Assembly: GCA_016932645.1 (NCBI GenBank) | Contig: JAFGCL010000161.1 | Span: 1 to 36,275 of the forward strand | DNA: 36,275 bases | Direction of reading: 5' to 3' | Origin: Dehalococcoidia bacterium | Lineage (GTDB): Bacteria; Chloroflexota; Dehalococcoidia; UBA2247; RBG-13-53-26 | Shown: piece by piece, positions 4,715 through 32,880 of the stretch | Numbering within the stretch: position 1 is the stretch's first letter | Layout of the letters: each line of letters opens with the position of its first letter | Program-made: the position numbers and the translations under genes | Notes under the pieces: generated by a model | The model's database searches: none | The model's input: the letters and a program-made list of their open reading frames with translations, nothing else | Told to the model about the DNA's origin: nothing

Positions 4715-4857
4715 TGAGGACAACTCACCATCCGCGATTCAGCCATCTACGCGTCGGGGCTCTGCCAAGATGTCACCCTAACGGCTCACTCAAGAGGCGT
4801 GAGATGCTGCCTACCTTCTGTCGGCATCGCCGTGGCACCCAGACCAGCCCCGCGGCG

Positions 4858-4887
4858 TTGACATCCCCCACCCCTCCAACATAAGAT
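4858..4887 (+). promoter_or_regulatory. Promoter copy 1 of the TTGACATC family (upstream of the STAS-like gene)
   Basis: -35 TTGACA at 4858-4863, 18 bp spacer, -10-like TAAGAT at 4882-4887, followed by TCAGACGG. It is about 90 bp upstream of the gene starting at 4977. It shares sequence and exact spacing with five other sites at 6373, 7755, 10960, 12466 and 12879. Confidence 0.7.
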
Positions 4888-4976
4888 TCAGACGGTTGTC
4901 CAGCCAGCCAGCTGGGCGAGTAGCAAACGAGTCGTGCAAGGAAGAATGACACGGTCGTTCAGCCCAGGAGGCAGCC

Positions 4977-5357
4977 ATGAGTCAGTACTGGCAATGGATT
5001 GAGCACAAAGGAAAGCGCATTCTTCTGGCGAAGTTCGGCGGCCTGAGGGACGAAAAGACCTATGTGGAGGCTATCGCCGACCTGGAGCAGGAGATACTGA
5101 GGCAGCCAAAGGGACAACTTATCCCGCTGGCGCTGGACGTGAGCGATACGCGCGTGACAAGGGCAGTTACCAACAGAGGCAAGCAACTGATGGAGACCGC
5201 CAAGGCAAACGGCATACCGGACAGCCCGACCGCACTGATCGGCCTTTCGGGAACGCAGAAGGCTATCGTGATGGCCATCCAGCTCGTCAGAGGCGACATA
5301 CACGTAGTGGGAAGCCTCGACGAAGCAAAGGACTGGCTCGTCAGCCGCCTGGGATAG
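4977..5357 (+). CDS. SpoIIAA/STAS-like small protein, paralogue 1
   Basis: A 126-residue soluble protein with no signal peptide or membrane segment. The alternating pattern (WQWIEHKGKRILLAKFGGL, a helix, LIPLALDVSDT, a helix, PTALIGLSG, a helix, GDIHVVGSLDEAKDWL) fits the SpoIIAA-like/STAS fold. A second copy lies at 16582-16947 and shares YxxWIExxGxRIL near the N-terminus and DIHV...EAKxW at the C-terminus. STAS-like proteins usually bind partners or nucleotides in stress or regulatory switches; here the partner is unknown. AGGAGG sits about 6 bp before the ATG. The gene appears monocistronic, with promoter copy 1 upstream and a separate gene 125 bp downstream. The fold assignment is from pattern only. 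Confidence 0.72.
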   Translation: MSQYWQWIEHKGKRILLAKFGGLRDEKTYVEAIADLEQEILRQPKGQLIPLALDVSDTRVTRAVTNRGKQLMETAKANGIPDSPTALIGLSGTQKAIVMAIQLVRGDIHVVGSLDEAKDWLVSRLG

Positions 5358-5482
5358 CGCCGCAGAGAAAACGATCGCACCGGGCCGCCATCGCGAGTCA
5401 ATCCGAAGCGTGGGGCTGGCGGAACGACAAGGATCTCAGCGCTGCAGCAGCCATGAAGCTCTGGTAGAAGAGGAGAAACGAC

Positions 5483-6319: not shown

Positions 6320-6372
6320 GTTCAGACTGTAGCGCGGCCTCGCACCACCTCCCCCAACAACCTGAACCGCCG

Positions 6373-6402
6373 TTGACATCCTCTGCCGCCGCACCATAGT
6401 AT
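6373..6402 (+). promoter_or_regulatory. Promoter copy 2 of the TTGACATC family (upstream of the YcxB-like gene)
   Basis: TTGACA at 6373-6378, 18 bp spacer, TAGTAT at 6397-6402, then TCAAGCGA. It lies 53 bp after the Fpg-like stop and upstream of the YcxB-like gene. The whole stretch, spacer included, closely matches copy 4 at 10960. Confidence 0.7.
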
Positions 6403-6558
6403 TCAAGCGACTCCCGCGTATCCCCAATGAACCGTGGTGCAAGCCCAGCCTTGACCACACCAGTGATCTTGTCGTACGATTTCACCCGACTCAAGACACC
6501 AAGCCAACCCTGTGATCTGCCTGACCCAGGTTCGGTCGCAGAGAAAGGGGATGCATCC

Positions 6559-7701: not shown

Positions 7702-7754
7702 GCTCCGCTCGGCCAACCATTTCCAACAGTAGAACCTAGTGGGTCCGACCACCG

Positions 7755-7784
7755 TTGACATCGTTCACCACCGCGCCATAACAT
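7755..7784 (+). promoter_or_regulatory. Promoter copy 3 of the TTGACATC family (upstream of the acetyltransferase-ABC operon)
   Basis: TTGACA at 7755-7760, 18 bp spacer, TAACAT at 7779-7784, followed by TCAGGCGAT. It lies about 50 bp upstream of the acetyltransferase start at 7834 and probably drives that gene plus the ABC exporter behind it. Confidence 0.7.
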
Positions 7785-7833
7785 TCAGGCGATCGTGTAA
7801 GCGGTAATCAAGTAATGTAGTGTTGAACCAGAC

Positions 7834-9296: not shown

Positions 9297-10954
9297 TGCT
9301 CGCCAGCGTGTTCGCCAAGACGCTCCGGGACAACTGGAGGTCATGGGTGATTGCTGTCGCCAGCCTCTCAGCCATGCTACTCCTGTCCATGTGGGCCTAC
9401 CGTGAGGTCGATCTCAGCTTCTACATGTCGCTGCCGGAAGTCTACCGTTCCATGCTAGGTATCCCTGAGAACGCGGATGTGGCCAGTCTGGCCATCAACG
9501 CCCACATGGGATCCTACGGTGCGATGACGGTCGCCGCGATAGCGCTCGGCATGGGAGCGGCCTCGATCGCCGGCGAAGAGCGGGCGGGGACCATTGCGCT
9601 TCTGCTGGCCAACCCCAGGAGCCGCACCCACGTGCTAGCATCCAAGGCAGCGTCGATGGTGCTCCTGGTTGGCCTCGCCATCCTGGGGTTGTGGGGCGCC
9701 ATCCATCTCGCGGCTCTAGCCCTCGGCATTTCGATCGCCGGCCTGCACCTCGGGGCCCTCACCCTGCACCTGTTCGCTAGCTCACTCTTCTACGGCTTTC
9801 TGGCAATGGCCATAGGGGCCTGGACCGGAAATCAGGGGGCAGGAGCAGGGTTGGCCATCGGAGTGATGTTCCTGTCATTCGTCGCCGTGGGCGTGCTGCC
9901 CCTCGTGGAAGGAGCGGAGGACTTCGTCAAGGCCTTCCCATGGTACTACTTCAATGGCGGCGATCCGTTGCTCAACGGGGTTCAATGGGGCCACATTGGC
10001 GTGTTGGCGGCTGCCTCCGCTGTTCTTGCCACCGGTGCGCTGATCGTGGTCAATCTGCGCGACCTCAAGGCCCAGTCCGTAGGCGGGACGTTCGTGGATC
10101 GGCTTCGCGCCAGCCCGTTCGCCGGGAAGGTCATCGGCCGCCTCTCCGGTTCGGCCCGCGTCTCCAGCATCTGGGCGAAGACCGCGGCGGAGTATCAGTG
10201 GCTGCTGGCAATCACGGCTGTCTATACGTTCCTGGTCCAAGGTGTGATGCTCGGTCCGATGTACGCAGCCATCCCCGAGGATCTCCTCTCGACCTTCTCG
10301 GATTTCCCGGAGGTCATGCTTGCCCTGTTCGGCGGCGGTGACATCTCCACTCCCCAGGGCTTCTACCAGATCGAGACGTTCGGCATGATGGCCCCCGTCG
10401 TGGTCATGGTGGTGACGATAGCTATTGGGGCAGTGGCCCTTGCCGGAGAAGAATCGCGCCGGACCATGGGCCTGCTGCTTGCCAACCCGATCAAGCGCTC
10501 CAGGGTCGTCCTGGAGAAGACCCAAACAATGATACTCTTCGCGTTCGTGTTGGGGTTCGTGACCTTCGTCGGCGTCGCCCTCGGTTCAGTGATCGGCGGC
10601 CTGGGCATCGACACCGGACACATCGCCGCCACATGCCTGTTGCAGACGCTGGTCGGGCTGGTCTTCGGCACTCTGGCTCTGGCCTTGAGCGCGGGTACAG
10701 GCCGCAAGAATGTGGCAATCTTCGGGGCTATCGGGGTGGGCATCTGTCTCCATCTCCTGAACGGACTGGCTGAGCTCAATGACGCCATCGCCGGCTGGGC
10801 AAAGCTCTCGCCGTTCTACTACTATCTGGGCAACGATCCGCTCAACAACGGCATGAATTGGACCCACGCCGCGGTTCTTGCCGGGGTCGTGATAGCTTTG
10901 ATCGCGCTTTCGGTGCTCCTCTTCCAGCGGCGGGACCTCCGGCAGACGAGCTAG
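9296..10954 (+). CDS. ABC-2 type permease with two homologous halves
   Basis: A 552-residue integral membrane protein with about 12 hydrophobic helices, the partner of the upstream ATPase. It is an internal duplication. Half 1 has AGEERAGTIALLLANPRSR followed by FPWYYFNGGDPLLNG. Half 2 has AGEESRRTMGLLLANPIKR followed by SPFYYYLGNDPLNNG. A loop of about 60-70 residues (DLKAQSVGGTFVDRLRASPF...) joins them. One chain thus supplies both membrane halves, as in tetronasin/polyketide-type antibiotic exporters. It overlaps the ATPase stop by one base and is the last gene of the operon. Confidence 0.9.
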   Translation: MLASVFAKTLRDNWRSWVIAVASLSAMLLLSMWAYREVDLSFYMSLPEVYRSMLGIPENADVASLAINAHMGSYGAMTVAAIALGMGAASIAGEERAGTIALLLANPRSRTHVLASKAASMVLLVGLAILGLWGAIHLAALALGISIAGLHLGALTLHLFASSLFYGFLAMAIGAWTGNQGAGAGLAIGVMFLSFVAVGVLPLVEGAEDFVKAFPWYYFNGGDPLLNGVQWGHIGVLAAASAVLATGALIVVNLRDLKAQSVGGTFVDRLRASPFAGKVIGRLSGSARVSSIWAKTAAEYQWLLAITAVYTFLVQGVMLGPMYAAIPEDLLSTFSDFPEVMLALFGGGDISTPQGFYQIETFGMMAPVVVMVVTIAIGAVALAGEESRRTMGLLLANPIKRSRVVLEKTQTMILFAFVLGFVTFVGVALGSVIGGLGIDTGHIAATCLLQTLVGLVFGTLALALSAGTGRKNVAIFGAIGVGICLHLLNGLAELNDAIAGWAKLSPFYYYLGNDPLNNGMNWTHAAVLAGVVIALIALSVLLFQRRDLRQTS

Positions 10955-10959
10955 CTGCG

Positions 10960-10989
10960 TTGACATCCTTTGCCGCTGCACCATAAGAT
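10960..10989 (+). promoter_or_regulatory. Promoter copy 4 of the TTGACATC family (upstream of the V4R-like gene)
   Basis: TTGACA at 10960-10965, 18 bp spacer, TAAGAT at 10984-10989, followed by TCAGGCGATTCCGCC. It starts 5 bp after the permease stop and is about 95 bp upstream of the V4R-like gene. It resembles copy 2 through the spacer and copy 3 downstream of the -10. Confidence 0.7.
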
Positions 10990-11082
10990 TCAGGCGATTC
11001 CGCCAGCAAGACAAGCGGGAACAGATCGCCAGCACTCTGGCGCAACTCCGTGTTAGCTACGGTTATTGAAGGGAGATGGAGA

Positions 11083-11658
11083 ATGACAAAGAGACCTCAG
11101 GTGAAAGCCTCCATCGTCAACTCGGCAATGCTGTTCGTCAGCCAGAGTCTTGGAGAGCCCGCCCTTAAGAGCATCCTGGATAGTTTTGACAGCCACGAGA
11201 TTTCCGGCAAGAGACTCTTGCCTTCAGCCTGGGTTTCAGAAGAGACATATCGCGATTTCCTGCTCGCCGCTGGCAGATACTTCGCCTCATTGGCCAGTGA
11301 GAAGAAACCTCAGGAGTTCTTCTTCGAAATGGGGAGATTCACCGCCATGGATGGAATAAACAAGTACTACAAATCGCTGATACGTATGTTTGATACCAAG
11401 TTTATGTTAACCCGAAGCCCCCTCCTCTGGGGTGTGATGCACACTCACGGAACGCTCAAGGTTGAGCCGGTAGGCAAGACCGGTGCCTATGTCTATATCA
11501 GTGACTTACCGGCTCCGTGCCAGGAGTTCTGTTATACGATGGAAGGGTACATGTACGCTGTCGCTGAATTGACCAAGGCAAAGGTCATCCGGGTAGAAGA
11601 AGTGGAATGCGTCATGGGAGGCGCCAAGCGCTGCAAGTACGTTGGGGAGTGGAAATAG
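11083..11658 (+). CDS. V4R/H-NOX-like sensor-domain protein
   Basis: A 191-residue soluble protein. The start is the ATG at 11083 with GGGAG about 8 bp upstream; an in-frame GTG at 11050 is less likely. The C-terminal end ECVMGGAKRCKYVGEWK has the Cys-x4-G...Cys pattern of V4R (4-vinyl-reductase-like)/heme-NO-binding-associated domains, which bind small hydrophobic molecules or metals. The N-terminal half (SAMLFVSQSLGEPALKSILDSF...WVSEETYRDFLLAAGRYFA) resembles the helical module of the Myxococcus-type TIGR02265/H-NOX-like family. No DNA-binding or output domain is visible, so it may act as a sensor or carrier. Fifty-three bp downstream is a metallo-beta-lactamase-fold gene, probably cotranscribed. 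Confidence 0.65.
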   Translation: MTKRPQVKASIVNSAMLFVSQSLGEPALKSILDSFDSHEISGKRLLPSAWVSEETYRDFLLAAGRYFASLASEKKPQEFFFEMGRFTAMDGINKYYKSLIRMFDTKFMLTRSPLLWGVMHTHGTLKVEPVGKTGAYVYISDLPAPCQEFCYTMEGYMYAVAELTKAKVIRVEEVECVMGGAKRCKYVGEWK

Positions 11659-11711
11659 ACGCCGCCAGAACAATGGAACCGCCCGTCTATACTCCATAGC
11701 GGGGACTCGAC

Positions 11712-12404
11712 ATGACAGCCCACCGGACATTCCAGAGCTTCAGACTCGGCTTCACGTGGTGCTACCTGCTCAAGTGCCGAGATGGCTACGTTCTCATAGA
11801 CACGTCTTATCCCGGCTACTTTCAGCCTTTCCAGAAATGCATCGCCAGGCTGGGGATAGACATGTCGGAGATCAAGTACCTGCTTCTGACACACCACCAT
11901 GATGACCACTCAGGGTTTGCGGCTGAGCTGGTCAGAAAGACAGCATGTCGGGTCATTGCTCATCCCAACGCCGTCGCGCCTTTGAAGAAGGGTGAATCAG
12001 AGGACACGGTGCAGCCCGTCAACCTTCGTGTCAAGTTCGTCTTCTCGATCTTCCAGTTGTTTCATCGGGGCTTCAGGTTCCCACCATTGTCCCTCGCAGA
12101 GAATGACTTCATCTTGACGGGTGATAATGACGATCTGCTGAAGAATATAGGCATTGATGGCAGGATTCTATACACTCCAGGCCACTCCCGGGATTCCCTT
12201 TCAGTTCTCCTGTCCGATGGCAGCGCCTTTGTCGGTGATGTGGCCATGAACTTCCTGCGCCCGACCGGAATCGGACACCGGCCGATCTTTGTTGAAGATA
12301 TCAACACGGTGTATGCTAGTTGGCAGAGGCTTGTAGAGGAAGGCGCAAAGGTAATCTATCCTTCCCATGGCAAGCCTTTCTCCTCCCGGGAACTTGTGGG
12401 GTGA
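11712..12404 (+). CDS. Metallo-beta-lactamase-fold hydrolase
   Basis: A 230-residue MBL-superfamily enzyme. It has the metal motif THHHDDHSG, then TPGHSRDS, FVGDVAMN, and a late His in YPSHGKPF, so all expected zinc (or iron) ligands are present. It starts YLLKCRDGYVLIDTSYPG, typical of the family. The length and motif order fit glyoxalase II/RNase Z-like small-molecule hydrolases; the substrate is not predictable. GGGGA precedes the ATG by about 7 bp. It lies 53 bp after the V4R-like gene with no clear promoter between, so it is probably the second gene of that unit. Confidence 0.88.
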   Translation: MTAHRTFQSFRLGFTWCYLLKCRDGYVLIDTSYPGYFQPFQKCIARLGIDMSEIKYLLLTHHHDDHSGFAAELVRKTACRVIAHPNAVAPLKKGESEDTVQPVNLRVKFVFSIFQLFHRGFRFPPLSLAENDFILTGDNDDLLKNIGIDGRILYTPGHSRDSLSVLLSDGSAFVGDVAMNFLRPTGIGHRPIFVEDINTVYASWQRLVEEGAKVIYPSHGKPFSSRELVG

Positions 12405-12465
12405 TGGCTGCTTAACAGGCTCCTCATGATCGGGCTCCTTGGCCCCCCTTTGGCATGCCAATTGA

Positions 12466-12495
12466 TTGACATCCTCCTGACTGGCACCGTAGCAT
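12466..12495 (+). promoter_or_regulatory. Promoter copy 5 of the TTGACATC family (upstream of DUF4491)
   Basis: TTGACA at 12466-12471, 18 bp spacer, TAGCAT at 12490-12495. It is about 70 bp upstream of the DUF4491 start. The ATTCAGGCGAT extension is lost, but a GCAGCAAGACG stretch downstream resembles sequence after copy 4. Confidence 0.65.
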
Positions 12496-12565
12496 TGGCC
12501 CAACTGTTGCAGCAAGACGACGTCCTGTACATACTTACTTGCGGATTACCCACGGAGGGCAACTC

Positions 12566-12847
12566 ATGAACATCAACGGAGCCGTTATTGGTCTAGCCAC
12601 CTTCGCCATTATCGGGGTGTTCCATCCCGTCGTGATAAAGACGGAGTACTATTTCGGTGCCAGGTTTTGGCCCGTCTTCCTGCTGGCCGGCATCGCCGGC
12701 ATCACCGGGTCGCTATTCGTCGAAAACACCATCATCTCCGCTCTACTCGGCGTGTTCGGGTTCTCAGCCCTATGGAGCATCCGGGAACTGCATGAACAGA
12801 CCCGGCGCGTGGAGAAGGGTTGGTTTCCGAAGAAACCCAGCCGCTAG
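12566..12847 (+). CDS. DUF4491 small membrane protein
   Basis: A 93-residue protein matching the DUF4491 pattern: NINGAVIGLATFAIIGVFHP, VVIKTEYYFGARFWPVFLLAG, SLFVENTIISALLGVFGFSALWSI, and a C-terminal RRVEKGWFPKKP. It has three hydrophobic helices and no known function. The start is the ATG at 12566, with GGAGGG about 6 bp upstream; a more upstream in-frame TTG at 12539 lacks support. It is monocistronic, behind promoter copy 5. Confidence 0.88.
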   Translation: MNINGAVIGLATFAIIGVFHPVVIKTEYYFGARFWPVFLLAGIAGITGSLFVENTIISALLGVFGFSALWSIRELHEQTRRVEKGWFPKKPSR

Positions 12848-12878
12848 CGCCCGCCTCCCGGAAAGGAGCACGGCATGG

Positions 12879-12908
12879 TTGACATGATTCGCTATGGCAA
12901 CGTAGCAT
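12879..12908 (+). promoter_or_regulatory. Promoter copy 6 of the TTGACATC family (upstream of the AbrB-like gene)
   Basis: TTGACA at 12879-12884, 18 bp spacer, TAGCAT at 12903-12908. It lies 32 bp after the DUF4491 stop and about 75 bp before the AbrB-like ATG. The AYCGTAGCAT-type -10 region resembles copy 5 most. Confidence 0.65.
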
Positions 12909-12983
12909 CTCTATAACCGTGTCGGCAAGATGGAAGGGAGTCCCGGTCTAAACCGCGAGAAATGCATAGAGAGGAGTCGCCCA

Positions 12984-13451
12984 ATGCCCCAGCTTGTCAA
13001 AGGCGGTAAGCACGTTTTCGGTTGGTCCCGTGTGGGCGACGACGGACATATCATTGTTCCCCCTGAAGCGCTGGTGGAATATCGCCTGACGGAACCTGAG
13101 AAGCTAGTCCTGATGCCGGGCAGCCGGACCTCCGGAGGTTTCGGGGTAGCATCCATGGAGTCTCTCAGAAGCTCCGCGCTTGGGGCCGCACTGAAGCTCC
13201 ACCCAAGCCTTCGACCGCTCCGGATGCCTGAAGGAGAACCAATCGAGTACAAAGGGAAAACGTATTGCCGGGTTGGACTGCGCGGCGGAGGCGTCACCGT
13301 TCCCCTGGGAACGTTGTCCAGGTACGGCGTCAACACTGGTGACAGACTGCTCGTGGTAAGAGGGAGCGGTCTCGCCGTCGGCTTCGCCGTCAGAGGACCG
13401 ATTGTCGAGGAAGCCAAGAGACACAGTGAACTGAAGGTATTCGGACCGTGA
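12984..13451 (+). CDS. Protein with two tandem AbrB-like repeats
   Basis: A 155-residue soluble protein. The ATG at 12984 is preceded by GAGGAG at 7 bp; an in-frame ATG at 12930 has no such site. It contains two similar units. The first is GDDGHIIVPPEALVEYRL, then EKLVLMPGSRTSGGFGV. The second is GGGVTVPLGTLSRYGV, then DRLLVVRGSGLAVGFAV. Each resembles a SpoVT/AbrB swapped-hairpin barrel (Gly-x-Ile-x-Ile-Pro-x-x-x-x-x-x-x-[YL]-x-[LV]...GDxLxV). AbrB-type domains often bind DNA as dimers; a one-chain duplicated form could be a DNA-binding or structural protein. I do not recognise a named family. It is monocistronic, behind promoter copy 6. Confidence 0.65.
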   Translation: MPQLVKGGKHVFGWSRVGDDGHIIVPPEALVEYRLTEPEKLVLMPGSRTSGGFGVASMESLRSSALGAALKLHPSLRPLRMPEGEPIEYKGKTYCRVGLRGGGVTVPLGTLSRYGVNTGDRLLVVRGSGLAVGFAVRGPIVEEAKRHSELKVFGP

Positions 13452-13575
13452 ACAAGCAGAGCTTGCCTTAACGGGGGACGCAAGGAGGGGCTGGTTACGG
13501 CAGGCACTCCCGCGCTCGATCCGTCGCCCATCGGGGAGTCCGAACCATCGAAGGAACAAGAAGGGGGTCCGGGAA

Positions 13576-14244
13576 GTGAAGCCCAGTGAAGGCGATGAAT
13601 ACCGCGGCGAAAACGCGGCTCAGTACGAGCGACAGGCCGCCGAACACGACTGGCACGGACATGAAATCCTGTTCGGCTTGATGTACGATTTCATTACCCC
13701 TGGGGAGAGTCTCCTCGACATTGGGATCGGCACCGGCCTAGCCTCACTGCGGTTCCACAGAGCGGGCCTCAAGGTATCGGGCTTTGACAACTCCCCGGAC
13801 ATGCTGAGAGGGTGTGAGTCAAAGTGCTTCGCGGGAGCAGTAGTGCAGCACGACCTGCAGGATGTGCCGTTTCCCTACGAATCAAGCTCCTTCAACCACG
13901 TGGTTTCTCTGGGCGTCTTGAACTTCTTCGCCGACCTTGCCCCCGTTTTCAGAGAGGCAGCGCGAATTATCAAGCCAAAGGGCATCTTCGGCTTCACGAT
14001 TGAAGAGAGAAAGCCCGGGCAACGATCGCGATACACCATTCGTTACACCGGGGAATCAGATGAGGGTGCTCATCAGTTCAAGATTGCCATGTTCCGCCAC
14101 GGTGACAAGCGGGTAAGGAGTCTGCTCGGAAGCGTCGGGTTTGCGGTGCTGAAAGAGCACGACTTCCTTGCGGACCGATACCCGGATCAGGGGATCGACG
14201 TGTACCTCAAGATATACGTAGCTCAGAAAGCGGCGTCAGGCTGA
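13576..14244 (+). CDS. Class I SAM-dependent methyltransferase
   Basis: A 222-residue UbiE-like methyltransferase. Motif I is LLDIGIGTGLASLRF, followed by VSGFDNSPDMLRG (ribose-binding acidic strand), the QHDLQDVPFPYESSSFNHVVSLGVLNFF motif II region, and IIKPKGIFGFTIEE. The initiation codon is GTG, 8 bp after AGGGGG. The substrate cannot be inferred. It is flanked by unrelated small genes and is probably monocistronic. Confidence 0.85.
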   Translation: MKPSEGDEYRGENAAQYERQAAEHDWHGHEILFGLMYDFITPGESLLDIGIGTGLASLRFHRAGLKVSGFDNSPDMLRGCESKCFAGAVVQHDLQDVPFPYESSSFNHVVSLGVLNFFADLAPVFREAARIIKPKGIFGFTIEERKPGQRSRYTIRYTGESDEGAHQFKIAMFRHGDKRVRSLLGSVGFAVLKEHDFLADRYPDQGIDVYLKIYVAQKAASG

Positions 14245-14314
14245 TTCTCAATTGCGATGCGCCCCCGCGGCCAACACGGCCCTTGACAGGATTCCTCGGC
14301 AAAGGTAGGTGTCT

Positions 14315-14761
14315 ATGAAACCACTGGGCATAAACAGGATCATACTGGCCGTCCGAGATCTGCAGAAAGCCAAGGCACTGTATTCGAAGATGCTTGGCGC
14401 CACATCCCATGACGCCAGTTGGACGGGAGCGCCACTGGGGATGGATGTGGCCATCAGTTGGGAGGCGGGTATCGAGCTCTGCGCACCAATGCAGGGGCGC
14501 GAAAAGGACTCCATGATTTCCGGTTTCCTCGACCAGAACGGTGACGGAATCCTTAGCATCGTCTTTGGTGTTCAAGACGCTGACGCTGTCAAGGAGAAGG
14601 CTGAGAAGGTCTGCATTCAGGCGCTCTATTCGGTCAACTACTCCCAACAAGAGATCGATGACCACCTGGACGGCTTGTTCCGCAAGTACAGAGAGTGGTT
14701 CATGAACTCGGCGGAAACCTGCGGTTTCACGGCGACGATCGCCCAGATTGTGCCGAAGTAG
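14315..14761 (+). CDS. VOC (glyoxalase/bleomycin-resistance fold) family protein
   Basis: A 148-residue vicinal-oxygen-chelate protein. The N-terminal betaalphabeta unit INRIILAVRDLQKAKALYSKML is characteristic, with a matching second half around GDGILSIVFGVQDADAVKEKAE. The C-terminal extension (about residues 110-140, DDHLDGLFRKYREWFMNS) is longer than minimal VOC proteins. An enzymatic role is likely but the substrate is unknown. The ATG at 14315 is used; an in-frame GTG lies 6 bp upstream at 14309. Confidence 0.75.
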   Translation: MKPLGINRIILAVRDLQKAKALYSKMLGATSHDASWTGAPLGMDVAISWEAGIELCAPMQGREKDSMISGFLDQNGDGILSIVFGVQDADAVKEKAEKVCIQALYSVNYSQQEIDDHLDGLFRKYREWFMNSAETCGFTATIAQIVPK

Positions 14762-14814
14762 AGACTGATCACGAGCACAAGCACCATGCTTCCGATCTTA
14801 GTAAGGAGGCCATC

Positions 14815-15201
14815 ATGACAATACGCATTGTCCGTCTGGGCACACCGAGAGCGGACAACGAGGGATTGCGCATCGGCACCGTTAGGCATCCACCTCGCGG
14901 CGTGCCCAAGAGCCAATACGCTTCCGACAACTGGTTCGACTTGTGGTTCCCCAATTTGGCGCCGAGCGCCGGACTGCTGAGGTCGGTCCGGGGCGCCAGG
15001 TCCGAAGCGGACTGGAGGGGCTTCTCACGCCGTTACAAGGCCGAAATGGCGGAGCCCGAGAAGGGCAGGGTGCTGGACGTGCTCGCCGCCCTCTCGCACC
15101 AAACCAACTTTTCCGTCGGCTGCTATTGCGCCGACGAACAACGCTGCCACCGGTCAATACTGCGGGCCTTGCTGCTGGAGCGAGGCGCAGTGGTAGAATG
15201 A
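14815..15201 (+). CDS. DUF488 family protein
   Basis: A 128-residue protein with the DUF488 hallmark near the C-terminus, FSVGCYCADEQRCHRSILRALL, containing the CxC...CHR cluster, plus NWFDLWFPNLAPS and DWRGFSRRYKAEM in the middle. DUF488 proteins are small cytosolic proteins of unproven function, sometimes suggested to be metal-binding. AAGGAGG sits 6 bp before the ATG. The much longer frame upstream (from 14695) is not coding. Confidence 0.88.
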   Translation: MTIRIVRLGTPRADNEGLRIGTVRHPPRGVPKSQYASDNWFDLWFPNLAPSAGLLRSVRGARSEADWRGFSRRYKAEMAEPEKGRVLDVLAALSHQTNFSVGCYCADEQRCHRSILRALLLERGAVVE

Positions 15202-15328
15202 AGACCTTGTATCTTCGCTCAAGGGCTCTCTGCTGGCAAAGGGTCGGCTTTGATGCTGGTTCCGTCAATACAATCCCGCCAGCCCGCCGGGCCCGGCCGG
15301 CACGCGGTGTTCAGCATGATGCAATGAT

Positions 15329-15676
15329 ATGTCCTTGTTAGAGATCGGATGCTGTGGCGCCTATTGTGGAACGTGCCGCGCGCTGGCGGACGGCGTCTGC
15401 CGCGGCTGCAGAATGGGTTACGACACCGGCGAAAGGGATATCGAAAAGGCCAGATGCCGGATCAAAGTCTGCTGCATCAAGAGACTGGGTGCGGAGCACA
15501 CATGTGCGGACTGCCCTGACTGCCTCACTTGTGATACGCTCCAGGGTATGTATGCCAGGAAGGGTTACAAGTACCGCAAGTACCGCCAATCACTGGAGTT
15601 CATCAGGAGGCACGGGTGCGATCGCTTCATTAAAGCGGCTGACAAGTGGAAAGGCGCCTACGGGAGGCTGCCATAG
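15329..15676 (+). CDS. DUF3795 cysteine-rich protein
   Basis: A 115-residue protein with a dense cysteine pattern: CCGAYCGTCRALADGVCRGC near the N-terminus, then CRIKVCCIKR, and CADCPDCLTCD. This matches the DUF3795 zinc or iron-sulfur binding family common in anaerobes; function unknown. The ATG at 15329 has no strong Shine-Dalgarno, but the family start is usually at this distance (6-8 residues) before the first CxxxC. It is followed 34 bp later by a small gene. Confidence 0.85.
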   Translation: MSLLEIGCCGAYCGTCRALADGVCRGCRMGYDTGERDIEKARCRIKVCCIKRLGAEHTCADCPDCLTCDTLQGMYARKGYKYRKYRQSLEFIRRHGCDRFIKAADKWKGAYGRLP

Positions 15677-15710
15677 TGGCAGTCAAGCCGACACGCAGAA
15701 GGGAGCTATC

Positions 15711-15890
15711 ATGAAGACACCCAAGCTCAACCGGGAGTGGCACCTCAGTCATCGGATGCCAAAGAATCCCACGTTGCAGCAGAGGCTGGAATGGCATCTG
15801 GAGCATGCGAAGAACTGCCAATGCCGTCCCATCACGGGCAAGTTCGCCGAGGAGATGAAGAAGAGGGGCATGTCGGTTCCCGGCATCTAG
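15711..15890 (+). CDS. Conserved small protein (59 residues)
   Basis: A 59-residue protein beginning MKTPKLNREWHLSHRMP, continuing ERLEWHLEHAKN-like (here QQRLEWHLEHAKNCQC) and ending GMSVPGI. It has a HxxxH spacing, two nearby cysteines (CQC) and a basic C-terminus. I recall similar short proteins in archaea and anaerobic bacteria but no named function. GGGAG lies 7 bp before the ATG. A larger overlapping frame (from 15354) is on the same codon frame but crosses the DUF3795 gene in another phase, so only the short version is real. Confidence 0.72.
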   Translation: MKTPKLNREWHLSHRMPKNPTLQQRLEWHLEHAKNCQCRPITGKFAEEMKKRGMSVPGI

Positions 15891-15935
15891 CTCAGCGCGA
15901 TACCAGGAAGCAGGGAATCACACAGGAGGTGCAGC

Positions 15936-16472
15936 ATGCAAGCACGCGGGCCTCTAATGATCGAACACCGTCTGATTGAAGGGATGATAGCCGTCATTCA
16001 GCGCAGACTGGAGCGCGCTGCCCAAACGCAGTCCATCGATCCGCACTTCGTCGATGCGGCTGTCGACTTCATCCGCGTCTATGCCGACCGCACGCACCAT
16101 GGTAAAGAGGAAGACATCCTTTTCAGGACTCTCCGGGACAAGAACCTGTCCGAAGAGCATCGGCGCATTATGAACGAACTTGTCCAGGAGCACGTTTTCG
16201 GCCGGGAGACCACGAAAGCTCTGGTCGAAGCCAACAGCCGCTACAGGAAGCGAGACATCGGAGCGTTGGCCGAGGTCACAGACCGTCTCAGGACACTGGT
16301 GGGCTTCTACCCGAAACACATCAAGAAGGAGGATACTGTCTTCTTCCCTGCTGCCCTCACCTACGTCACGGAACAGGAAGACCAAGCCATGCTGGCTGAG
16401 TTCTGGGAGTTCGACCGGAAGATGATACACGAGAAGTACAAGGCTGTGGTCAAAGGGTTCATGCGGGAATGA
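15936..16472 (+). CDS. Hemerythrin HHE domain protein
   Basis: A 178-residue four-helix hemerythrin-type protein that binds a non-heme diiron centre, and commonly handles O2, NO or iron. Candidate ligands are His11 (IEHRLIE), His54/His55 with Glu58/Glu59 (THHGKEED), His86 (EHVFGR), and His128 with Glu132 (FYPKHIKKEDTVFFP), the usual set. AGGAGG precedes the ATG. Close neighbours are a cysteine-rich protein and small unknowns, so a redox or oxygen-stress context is plausible. Confidence 0.9.
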   Translation: MQARGPLMIEHRLIEGMIAVIQRRLERAAQTQSIDPHFVDAAVDFIRVYADRTHHGKEEDILFRTLRDKNLSEEHRRIMNELVQEHVFGRETTKALVEANSRYRKRDIGALAEVTDRLRTLVGFYPKHIKKEDTVFFPAALTYVTEQEDQAMLAEFWEFDRKMIHEKYKAVVKGFMRE

Positions 16473-16513
16473 AGTGCAAAGGACCGCCTGCCTGCCCGGT
16501 GTTTCCCAAGGGG

Positions 16514-16541
16514 TTTACAAGAGGCGCACTTCATATATTAT
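16514..16541 (+). promoter_or_regulatory. Promoter for the second STAS-like gene
   Basis: TTTACA at 16514-16519, 16 bp spacer, TATTAT at 16536-16541 within an AT-rich block (TATATTATATGAT). It is about 40 bp upstream of the ATG at 16582. It does not belong to the TTGACATC family. Confidence 0.5.
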
Positions 16542-16581
16542 ATGATCTGTCCTGCCAAATGACGTTTAGGGGGTAGAAGGC

Positions 16582-16947
16582 ATGGGGAAATACGTGAGTT
16601 GGATCGAGTATCGCGGCCAGAGGATCCTCTATAGTGATTACTCCGGATTGAAAGGAGCCGCCTATGAATCCGCAGTCGATGAGACCCTCGCCGCACTGCT
16701 GAAAATCCCCGACGGCACCACTGCTCCCAGCATAACGAATATCAAGGGTACTGCAATGTCGTCGGCGACAGCAGCCAAGGGCCGGCAGATCGACGCATTG
16801 GTGAAGAAGAAGAAACTCAGGGGGCCGACTGTCGTAGTGGGCGCATCAGCCCTGGCAGGCTCGGTCATCAGCCTTATGCAAGCGGACATCCACGTAGCCA
16901 AGACCCTCGGAGAGGCAAAGGAGTGGATAGTCAACAACCCCTCGTAG
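16582..16947 (+). CDS. SpoIIAA/STAS-like small protein, paralogue 2
   Basis: A 121-residue paralogue of the gene at 4977. It keeps YxxWIExRGxRIL at the N-terminus and ADIHVAKTLGEAKEWI at the C-terminus. The middle differs (APSITNIKGTAM and a KKKK loop). The same STAS/SpoIIAA-like fold is inferred, and no catalytic residues are recognised. The pair brackets the accessory cluster 4.9-16.9 kb. It has its own promoter-like region and GGGGG 9 bp before the ATG, and is probably monocistronic, since the next gene starts 43 bp later with its own AAGGAGG. Confidence 0.72.
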   Translation: MGKYVSWIEYRGQRILYSDYSGLKGAAYESAVDETLAALLKIPDGTTAPSITNIKGTAMSSATAAKGRQIDALVKKKKLRGPTVVVGASALAGSVISLMQADIHVAKTLGEAKEWIVNNPS

Positions 16948-20570: not shown

Positions 20571-20641
20571 GAGTGCAAGGGTGCCCCCCGTTCCCCTTCG
20601 TTTGTCCTCCCCCAAGAATGGGGGATCATAGATGGTTGATG
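20571..20641 (+). repeat. Intergenic hairpin repeat, copy 1
   Basis: Member of a three-copy family (others at 25288-25350 and 32788-32880). The core is CCCCC (20609-20613), AAGAAT, GGGGG (20620-20624), preceded by a GC-rich stretch with TGCCCCCCG and followed by ATCATAGATGGTTGA. It lies in the gap between pheA and the next methyltransferase; the gap otherwise holds no gene that I can support. Confidence 0.75.
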
Positions 20642-25287: not shown

Positions 25288-25350
25288 GTGCGAGGGGCAC
25301 AGCCCCTCTGCCTCTTTTCCATCCCCCAAGACTGGGGGTTATGGAGGTTG
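25288..25350 (+). repeat. Intergenic hairpin repeat, copy 2
   Basis: A strong hairpin GAGGGGC (25292-25298), ACA, GCCCCTC (25302-25308), then CTCTTTTCCAT, then CCCCC (25323-25327), AAGACT, GGGGG (25334-25338), then TTATGGAGGTTGA. It shares architecture and core sequence with copies 1 and 3. Confidence 0.8.
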
Positions 25351-32787: not shown

Positions 32788-32880
32788 AGGGTGCAGGGAC
32801 TCGTCCCTGCCGTGGGCCTGGGGGTGTCCCCCAGCTTCCCTTTCTCTTCCCCCAAGAGTGGGGGAAAAAGGGGGCTGAAA
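32788..32880 (+). repeat. Intergenic hairpin repeat, copy 3 (longest)
   Basis: Three hairpins in series. GCAGGGAC (32793-32800), TC, GTCCCTGC (32803-32810). CTGGGGG (32818-32824), TGT, CCCCCAG (32828-32834). CCCCC (32849-32853), AAGAGT, GGGGG (32860-32864), then AAAAAGGGGGCTGA. The last core is shared with copies 1 and 2. Confidence 0.82.

What the first reader, a model, noticed from the sequence alone, without database searches (positions are those of the whole stretch)
12984..13451. Tandem duplicated AbrB-like domain in one chain
Two units with matching patterns (IIVPPEALVEY...LVLMPGSRTSGGFGV and VTVPLGTLSRYGV...LLVVRGSGLAVGFAV). AbrB-like domains usually dimerise; a built-in pair with a GSRTSGGFG loop may form a monomeric barrel. 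It sits behind a member of the promoter family and could even be its regulator (speculation).
Basis: partly seen in the sequence, partly recalled or inferred. Interest (0 to 1): 0.5.

Follow-up and report, generated by a model that had tools for sequence, protein, structure and literature searches.

The report
Two-in-one AbrB-fold barrel protein
A small protein made of two fused copies of a fold that bacteria normally use, as separate paired subunits, to bind DNA; it belongs to an unnamed family scattered across bacteria and archaea that lacks the arginine its relatives use on DNA, so its real job is open.

Summary
Window 12984-13451 (+) encodes 155 aa with two homologous units (half-against-half profile probability 97%, 0 of 60 shuffles as good). 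AlphaFold2, given 45 relatives, predicts one compact chain of two beta-beta-alpha-beta-beta units (pLDDT 90.7, pTM 0.87). Its only strong solved match is MraZ, the known single-chain AbrB-fold pseudo-dimer (Z 10.3-10.7, next row 4.8), so this arrangement is already known. By sequence it stands apart from MraZ: both halves match AbrB/MazE better, none of 46 members matches Pfam MraZ at E<=1, and this genome has its own mraZ. One pattern search found 213 relatives, from Lokiarchaeota to Firmicutes. None of the libraries searched showed a model of the family itself. The arginine at P+4, present in 10 of 10 AbrB/MazE and 7 of 7 MraZ units compared, is basic in 1 of 46 first and 0 of 44 second halves. 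Two matching GS hairpin loops are conserved instead. Control of the window's promoter family is not supported. Architecture is near certain, function is not; I lean slightly to a ligand- or partner-binding barrel over a classical DNA regulator.

The parts
12984..13451 (+). Gene for the 155-aa tandem AbrB-fold protein (stop codon TGA 13449-13451)
   Evidence: AF2 pLDDT 90.7, pTM 0.87
13011..13154 (+). Unit 1, aa 10-57: beta10-16, beta22-24, alpha27-32, beta40-45, beta53-57
   Evidence: Model; profile match to AbrB/MazE domains 92.4%, 0 of 60 shuffles as good
13155..13238 (+). Helical linker, aa 58-85; much shorter in relatives L059 (134 aa) and L077 (131 aa)
13257..13388 (+). Unit 2, aa 92-135: beta92-100, beta103-105, alpha108-113, beta121-126, beta132-135
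   Evidence: Model; profile match to AbrB/MazE domains 95.4%, 0 of 60 shuffles as good
13119..13142 (+). Hairpin loop 1, GSRTSGGF (aa 46-53); family pattern GS[KR]x[ST]GGF
   Evidence: Weighted conservation over 46 rows: G46 97%, S47 94%, K/R48 90%, S/T50 100%, G51 97%, G52 100%, F53 92%
13359..13385 (+). Hairpin loop 2, RGSGLAVGF (aa 126-134), in register with loop 1; R126 and S128 invariant in 46 rows
13398..13418 (+). C-terminal helix aa 139-145, behind the invariant G138
12970..12976 (+). Ribosome-binding-like AGAGGAG
   Evidence: Read from the sequence
12879..12908 (+). Sigma-70-like promoter, TTGACA-18-TAGCAT, 10 of 12 matches
   Evidence: 4 sites in 10900-16600 where shuffles give 2.1 +/- 1.4: weak by itself

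Best explanation
The gene makes a single-chain pseudo-dimer of the AbrB/MazE swapped-hairpin type: two homologous beta-beta-alpha-beta-beta units, fused head to tail by a short helical linker, close into one barrel within one molecule. Ordinary AbrB needs two chains for this. Shown here: duplication, homology of both halves to AbrB/MazE, and the scattered distribution. Predicted: fold and closure in one chain. Inferred: it is not a classical AbrB-type DNA reader, because the P+4 arginine is gone from both halves. The function-bearing surface is more likely the pair of matching hairpin loops, GS[KR]x[ST]GGF and R[GS]S, which may bind an anionic ligand or a partner protein. It would then act as an accessory or sensor in small gene modules that bring their own DNA-binding regulators (PadR, MerR, DUF134). 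My split: architecture 0.93; given the architecture, ligand or partner binding 0.44, DNA binding by another surface 0.41, other 0.15.
For: Duplication. AbrB homology. Fold: with MraZ at Z 9.9-10.7 for both models and the next row at 4.8 or below. Loss of the P+4 arginine: basic in 1 of 46 first and 0 of 44 second halves, against 10 of 10 AbrB/MazE domains and 7 of 7 MraZ halves that fitted the anchor pattern (10 of 11 and 7 of 12 fitted). I take P+4 to be AbrB R23 from recall of the AbrB sequence. R23 is one of four arginines proposed as AbrB's DNA site (PMC4022651, passages) and equals Sso7c4 R22 (PMC5222340, passages). Invariant sites outside the search pattern: P26, A29, E32, Y33, G52, R126, S128, G138. 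Regulators beside relatives: PadR within four genes in 23 and MerR in 6 of 40 gut-type loci with enough flank; DUF134 in 5 of 25 environmental loci, window included (families by Pfam; counts). A linked trio, this gene + DUF998 + ATC_hydrolase, in 13 of those 40 loci and in three gene orders.
Against: Single-arginine changes are mild in known cases: AbrB R15A still binds DNA, and Sso7c4 R22A binds only about twofold worse (5.07 against 2.73 uM), while R11A/R22A loses measurable binding. So loss of one arginine per half does not exclude DNA binding. No coordinates were available, so I could not show that the conserved loops form a pocket. Net charge is mildly positive (mean +3.7, range -3 to +11), close to the AbrB and MraZ controls. 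A lysine-rich N-terminal arm (PQxxKGGK) could grip DNA; its invariance is inflated because the search pattern demanded it. In many gut-type loci the PadR gene is divergent from this one, so the protein could be a co-regulator. The window shares none of the partner modules.
Confidence: 0.44

Rival explanations
1. It is a DNA-binding transcription regulator working like MraZ or AbrB, but with a different contact surface (N-terminal lysine arm and strand 2), controlling its own or neighbouring genes.
For: Best solved match is MraZ, including complexes with promoter DNA. Both halves match AbrB/MazE profiles. It has a sigma-70-like promoter upstream. In many gut-type relatives it is divergent from a PadR gene. 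Single contact arginines are dispensable in AbrB (R15A) and nearly so in Sso7c4.
Against: P+4 arginine missing in both halves. No inverted repeat found upstream. No 7- to 9-mer shared by 3 or more of 7 upstream regions, window and L011-L016. L014, L017, L018 and L022 lie between same-strand genes with gaps of at most 51 nt on both sides (simple ORF calls), so they need not have a promoter of their own.
Confidence: 0.38
2. It is an antitoxin of a MazEF- or VapBC-type toxin-antitoxin pair.
For: 13 of 46 relatives match the Pfam model named MazE_antitoxin. By eye, RelE-like genes lie near two loci: downstream of the truncated copy in L008 (with a DinJ-like antitoxin of their own) and three genes upstream in L020.
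Against: No toxin family among seven window neighbours, three upstream and four downstream, nor among ten further window ORFs, apart from a side match of an ABC-transporter ATPase to PF13304, a model titled putative AbiEii toxin. None of the 18 neighbour-cluster representatives read looked like a toxin, nor did the ten proteins scanned. No disordered tail in the model (no segment under pLDDT 50, last block 93). No PADLOC match in 46 members.
Confidence: 0.04
3. It is a divergent MraZ.
For: Same two-unit single-chain layout; Z 10.3-10.7. All four half-against-half comparisons with MraZ still beat all 60 shuffles. L028 touches an NCBIfam MraZ model at E 0.22.
Against: Those four comparisons reach 6-52% probability against 92-95% for AbrB/MazE (the MraZ profile has only 6 close sequences, which weakens this). 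No Pfam MraZ match at E<=1 in 46 members. P+4 arginine absent. This genome has its own two-unit MraZ at C206.
Confidence: 0.06

Closest known systems
MraZ (PF02381; structures 1n0e, 1n0f, 9qlg, 9r4j, 9sz7)
   Same: Two AbrB-type units fused in one chain; same overall fold (Z 10.3-10.7, 111-116 residues aligned, rmsd 3.7-5.3).
   Different: Weak sequence profile match (6-52%), no Pfam MraZ match in 46 members, no P+4 arginine; not beside cell-division genes in the window; members of A2 are 131-163 aa; patchy spread.
AbrB / MazE / SpoVT domains (PF04014, TIGR01439)
   Same: Each half is a beta-beta-alpha-beta-beta unit with the G-x-hydrophobic-x-hydrophobic-P core; profile probability 92-95%.
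   Different: AbrB makes its barrel from two chains (PMC4739770, passages). Here it is one chain, without the P+4 arginine and with conserved GS hairpin loops.
HgcC (NF040962, HgcAB-associated protein)
   Same: 8 of 46 relatives match this AbrB-like model at E<=1, best 4.9e-7.
   Different: The model is a single unit of 70 positions; the matches seen (best 29.5 bits) are far below its cut-off of 70.
Sso7c4 (archaeal SpoVT-AbrB superfamily protein)
   Same: Same swapped-hairpin superfamily (PMC5222340, passages).
   Different: A homodimer that binds DNA through arginine pairs; the R22 place, equal to AbrB R23, is not basic here.

Membership tests
AbrB/MazE swapped-hairpin superfamily | beta-beta-alpha-beta-beta unit with G-x-hydrophobic-x-hydrophobic-P core, by profile | tested here: met
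   Both halves: 92.4% and 95.4% against AbrB/MazE domains of related genomes, 0 of 60 shuffles as good. Four of ten relatives scanned singly pass the Pfam cut-off (L011, L012, L018, L028). The window protein alone has no Pfam match.
AbrB/MazE swapped-hairpin superfamily | Barrel of the AbrB type in the three-dimensional structure | tested here: met
   Predicted, not solved: pLDDT 90.7 and 93.0; MraZ at Z 9.9-10.7.
Classical AbrB-type DNA-binding protein | Contact arginine at P+4 (AbrB R23, place assigned from recall) | tested here: not met
   Basic in 1 of 46 first and 0 of 44 second halves; 10 of 10 and 7 of 7 in the controls that fitted the anchor.
Classical AbrB-type DNA-binding protein | Sequence-specific DNA binding | not testable with these tools
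   No operator-like inverted repeat or shared word found upstream, which does not exclude binding.
MraZ | Two AbrB-type units in one chain | tested here: met
   MraZ symmetry from PMC4739770 (passages).
MraZ | Match to the MraZ profile PF02381 | tested here: not met
   Not among the 16 families matched by any of 46 members at E<=1; one member touches an NCBIfam MraZ model at E 0.22.
MraZ | Sits with division/cell-wall genes | tested here: not met
   Window neighbours scanned: V4R-like (below cut-off), metallo-beta-lactamase-fold, DUF4491, methyltransferase, glyoxalase-like, hemerythrin, and others without division genes. The genome's own MraZ is on C206.
MazE antitoxin | Adjacent cognate toxin gene | tested here: not met
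   Three neighbours upstream and four downstream scanned, no toxin family. For the relatives only shared clusters were looked at.

The most novel reading that the evidence does not exclude
A widespread, unnamed family of single-chain AbrB barrels that has given up classical DNA reading and turned the two matching hairpin loops (GS[KR]x[ST]GGF and R[GS]S) into a pseudo-symmetric binding site. It would be a living step between DNA-binding AbrB dimers and other single-chain cradle-loop barrels, used as an accessory in PadR/DUF998/ATC-hydrolase and MinD/NifX/DUF134 modules.
Probability: 0.27. Interest if true: 0.62.

Novelty: new variant of a known kind. Interest (0 to 1): 0.42.

Why it matters
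AbrB (one motif per chain, homodimer) and MraZ (two copies in one chain) are used as the example of barrels formed by duplication (PMC4739770, passages). A second fusion family, apparently separate, in bacteria and archaea including Lokiarchaeota, gives another case to compare. If it no longer binds DNA, it shows how a DNA-binding fold can be put to other use. It also makes the function of an uncharacterised gene testable in culturable gut Firmicutes, where it often lies beside PadR genes.

Tried and rejected
Family libraries: the window protein has no match in Pfam at E<=10, PHROGs at E<=10 or PADLOC at E<=0.01, and only a chance-level MscS match in NCBIfam (E 0.31). All 46 members of A2 were blank in PHROGs and PADLOC at E<=0.01. 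PDB sequence searches gave chance-level rows only (best 0.03 and 0.46). Weak genome matches (E 0.005-0.009; G472; G650), some with internal stops, were not used as relatives.

Promoter regulator idea: tested and not supported. The element pattern finds 7 places in this genome (up to 1 mismatch) against 0 for the reversed control, 1 in G001, 0 in G002, 1 in G003 and 0 in six others. My first pattern had a wrong spacing and found nothing.

Operator search: no shared 7- to 9-mers among 7 upstream regions (plain shuffles, small sample; shuffles gave 2.5 shared 7-mers on average). One imperfect 13-nt direct repeat at 12930 and 12966, not followed up.

Mobility: no match in plasmids or phages for the window protein (E<=0.1) or for member L092 (E<=1e-3). 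Five relatives lie in IMG/VR contigs; the single-sequence scan there found none.

Literature: no paper on a tandem AbrB family other than MraZ turned up in the searches, of which I saw listings. I read passages of four papers: PMC4739770, PMC4022651, PMC5222340, PMC7761207. Only open-licence PMC papers are held, so this is weak evidence of absence.

Structural absences: AbrB or MazE dimers do not appear high, as expected when one chain is compared with single chains.

Limits: A2 holds the window and 45 of the 85 loci. Near-copies, L020 (runs to the contig end) and the broken copies L054 and L062 were left out; I chose the rows by eye. Of 213 relatives only the best 80 were kept by the tool. 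Genes around relatives are simple longest-ORF calls; eleven loci lost their family gene that way, mended by forcing it. The neighbour HMMs were built from clusters of the same loci, and many gut-type loci are near-copies. The 'gut-type' set is the 56 loci that are neither environmental nor viral in my sorting and includes some from other habitats. In one search, 10 of 11 AbrB domains (11 kept of 19 found) and 7 of 12 MraZ halves fitted the anchor. In one search the upstream MinD row of L077 looks like an antisense ORF and I give it no weight.

Full report
What is there. Window 12984-13451 on the + strand is an open gene for 155 residues, with a ribosome-binding-like AGAGGAG 7 nt before the ATG. 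Scanned neighbours on the same strand are a V4R-like protein (below the curated cut-off), a metallo-beta-lactamase-fold protein, DUF4491, then this gene, a methyltransferase, a glyoxalase-like protein, a cysteine-rich protein without a Pfam match, and a hemerythrin. The genome is a draft of 2.43 Mb in 238 contigs, 72.8% complete, with no second clear copy (the other row there has E 0.08). Its class seems to be Dehalococcoidia: G262 of the same class carries a protein identical to that of L058, titled Dehalococcoidia bacterium UBA5748.

Two units in one chain. BLASTP of the window's own halves gives E 2e-4. Profiles of the halves from a 46-row alignment match each other at 97.0% probability, score 52.6, while 60 column shuffles reach at most 19.1. 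AlphaFold2 gives mean pLDDT 90.7 and pTM 0.87 with the order bb-a-bb, linker helices, bb-a-bb, C-terminal helix. A natural short relative, L077 (131 aa, with a much shorter linker), gives 93.0 and 0.88; there the helix of the second unit is reduced and not listed as an element. The high pTM of a single chain is what a closed one-chain barrel predicts. It does not prove the oligomeric state.

Which fold. Against solved structures the only strong rows are MraZ: Z 10.3-10.7 over 111-116 residues at rmsd 3.7-5.3 for the window protein, and 9.9-10.2 for L077. The next rows are at 4.8 and 4.3. Foldseek alone ranks MraZ first, E 2.9e-4, TM 0.54/0.60. AbrB is a homodimer with one motif per chain, and MraZ has two copies in one chain (PMC4739770, passages).

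Which family. Both halves match AbrB/MazE domains of related genomes (92.4 and 95.4%) and match MraZ halves less (6.4 to 52.2%), though all of these beat all 60 shuffles and the MraZ profile is narrow (6 sequences). 13 of 46 members match Pfam MazE_antitoxin, 11 of 46 NCBIfam's AbrB domain and 8 of 46 HgcC, all at E<=1. In ten members scanned singly, eight match MazE_antitoxin, with the best stretch on the first half in four and on the second in four; four pass the cut-off. The window member matches none of these. No member matches MraZ in Pfam at E<=1, and the genome carries its own two-unit MraZ. The simplest reading is a second, separate fusion of AbrB-type units. I did not prove independence with a tree of single units.

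Spread. One degenerate pattern in the genome collection gave 247 stretches, 213 of them relatives, of which the best 80 were kept. Those 80 include Chloroflexota, Electryonea, KSB1, Aminicenantes, Bathyarchaeota, Lokiarchaeota, WOR-3, spirochaetes, Firmicutes and others. In the window's own class, 2 of 343 and 2 of 294 genomes have it, the window's included. In the phylum it is 4 of 400 in each of two searches, the window's and one weak hit with an internal stop included in each. The two other genomes of the genus gave no match (G001, 95% complete with 8% contamination; G002, 85%). In the tree the window sits in a six-row set with L011 (Electryoneota), L012 (a Chloroflexia bin), L013 (KSB1), L014 and L015 (Aminicenantes) at 97/91, apart from the Dehalococcoidia members; Chloroflexota rows need 5 changes of label. 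That patchy pattern is best explained by transfer (inference); bins can be contaminated.

Loss of the usual DNA contact. AbrB's proposed DNA site is R8, R15, R23 and R24 (PMC4022651, passages). AbrB R23 corresponds to Sso7c4 R22 (PMC5222340, passages). I place R23 four residues after the core proline from recall of the AbrB sequence. That place is arginine in 10 of 10 AbrB/MazE domains and 7 of 7 MraZ halves that fitted the anchor. In this family it is basic in 1 of 46 first and 0 of 44 second halves, where leucine is commonest. The other three places are not conserved either, but the AbrB/MazE controls also lack basic residues at them (0 of 7, 0 of 10, 1 of 10), so only the P+4 loss is telling. 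Against over-reading: AbrB R15A still binds DNA, and Sso7c4 R22A binds about twofold worse, with the double change R11A/R22A losing measurable binding.

What is conserved instead. Outside the search pattern the invariant residues are P26, A29, E32, Y33, G52, R126, S128 and G138. The two strand 3-strand 4 hairpin loops line up, GS[KR]x[ST]GGF with R[GS]S, and are among the best kept parts. I infer a site made by the two loops, possibly for an anion or a partner. The invariance of the N-terminal PQxxKGGK is inflated, since the search required it.

Neighbours of relatives. I sorted the 85 loci into 24 environmental, 56 gut-type and 5 viral ones. Of the 56, 40 have at least two genes upstream and three downstream. 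In these 40, PadR lies within four genes in 23, the membrane protein DUF998 in 20, MerR in 6 and ATC_hydrolase in 13; all 13 also have DUF998 (families by Pfam). The order varies: this gene-DUF998-ATC in ten loci, ATC-this gene-DUF998 in L053 (and in L034, outside the 40), ATC-DUF998-this gene in L085 and L087. That argues for a working link there rather than mere inheritance of one locus, though many loci are near-copies. Of 25 environmental loci (window included), 5 have a MinD-type ATPase with ferredoxin domains nearby (L016, L018, L032, L058, L077) and 5 have DUF134 (L016, L018, L032, L058, L080). The window has none of these. In the viral contigs L091, L093 and L094 the gene lies between a small gene without a Pfam match and a tape measure gene; in L092 and L095 the tape measure gene is two genes upstream.

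The promoter idea. The window's promoter family is a longer element, CGTTGACATC...CATANNATTCANNCG, with four full copies at 4856, 6371, 7753 and 10958. This gene's upstream site at 12879 shares TTGACAT and the spacing to a -10-like hexamer. Element copies occur singly in G001 and G003, where no copy of this protein was found. So the protein is not needed wherever the element occurs, as far as draft genomes can tell.

Verdict. The family looks distinct, and no model of the family itself showed up in the libraries searched. The regulator-of-the-promoter speculation is unsupported. The function is open, and I lean slightly to a role other than classical DNA binding.

Noticed in passing
window 4856-4899, 6371-6414, 7753-7796, 10958-11001: Four copies of a promoter-like element CGTTGACATC...CATANNATTCANNCG, each ahead of an open frame. 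Seven places in this genome (up to 1 mismatch, reversed control 0), four of them in this 36-kb window; 0 or 1 in each of nine related genomes.
   Followed up: partly
window 20601-20625, 25315-25339, 32841-32865: Three copies of a 25-nt element around TCCCCCAAGA-TGGGGG, itself a short inverted repeat.
   Followed up: no
L091, L093, L094 (about 5001-5465); also L092, L095: Relatives of this gene sit among phage tail genes of IMG/VR contigs, near a tape measure gene, like an added cargo gene.
   Followed up: partly
L034, L053, L085, L087 and loci such as L037, L042, L047: A gene trio of tandem AbrB-fold protein, DUF998 and ATC_hydrolase in three different orders, often with a divergent PadR gene.
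   Followed up: partly
L026 260-2339 and window 12984-15676: A Lokiarchaeota contig has this gene near a glyoxalase-like gene, a methyltransferase and a cysteine-rich protein resembling the one at window 15329-15676; L026 judged by eye, not tested.
   Followed up: no
L008 1501-1929, L054 5001-5192, L062 5001-5162: Relatives with a lost second half or an early stop, so the gene seems to decay in some genomes.
   Followed up: no
L104, L110, L111: Single-unit AbrB-like proteins with a cysteine-rich start in related genomes; a second frame in L111 contains what reads like the start of another cysteine-rich protein (by eye).
   Followed up: no
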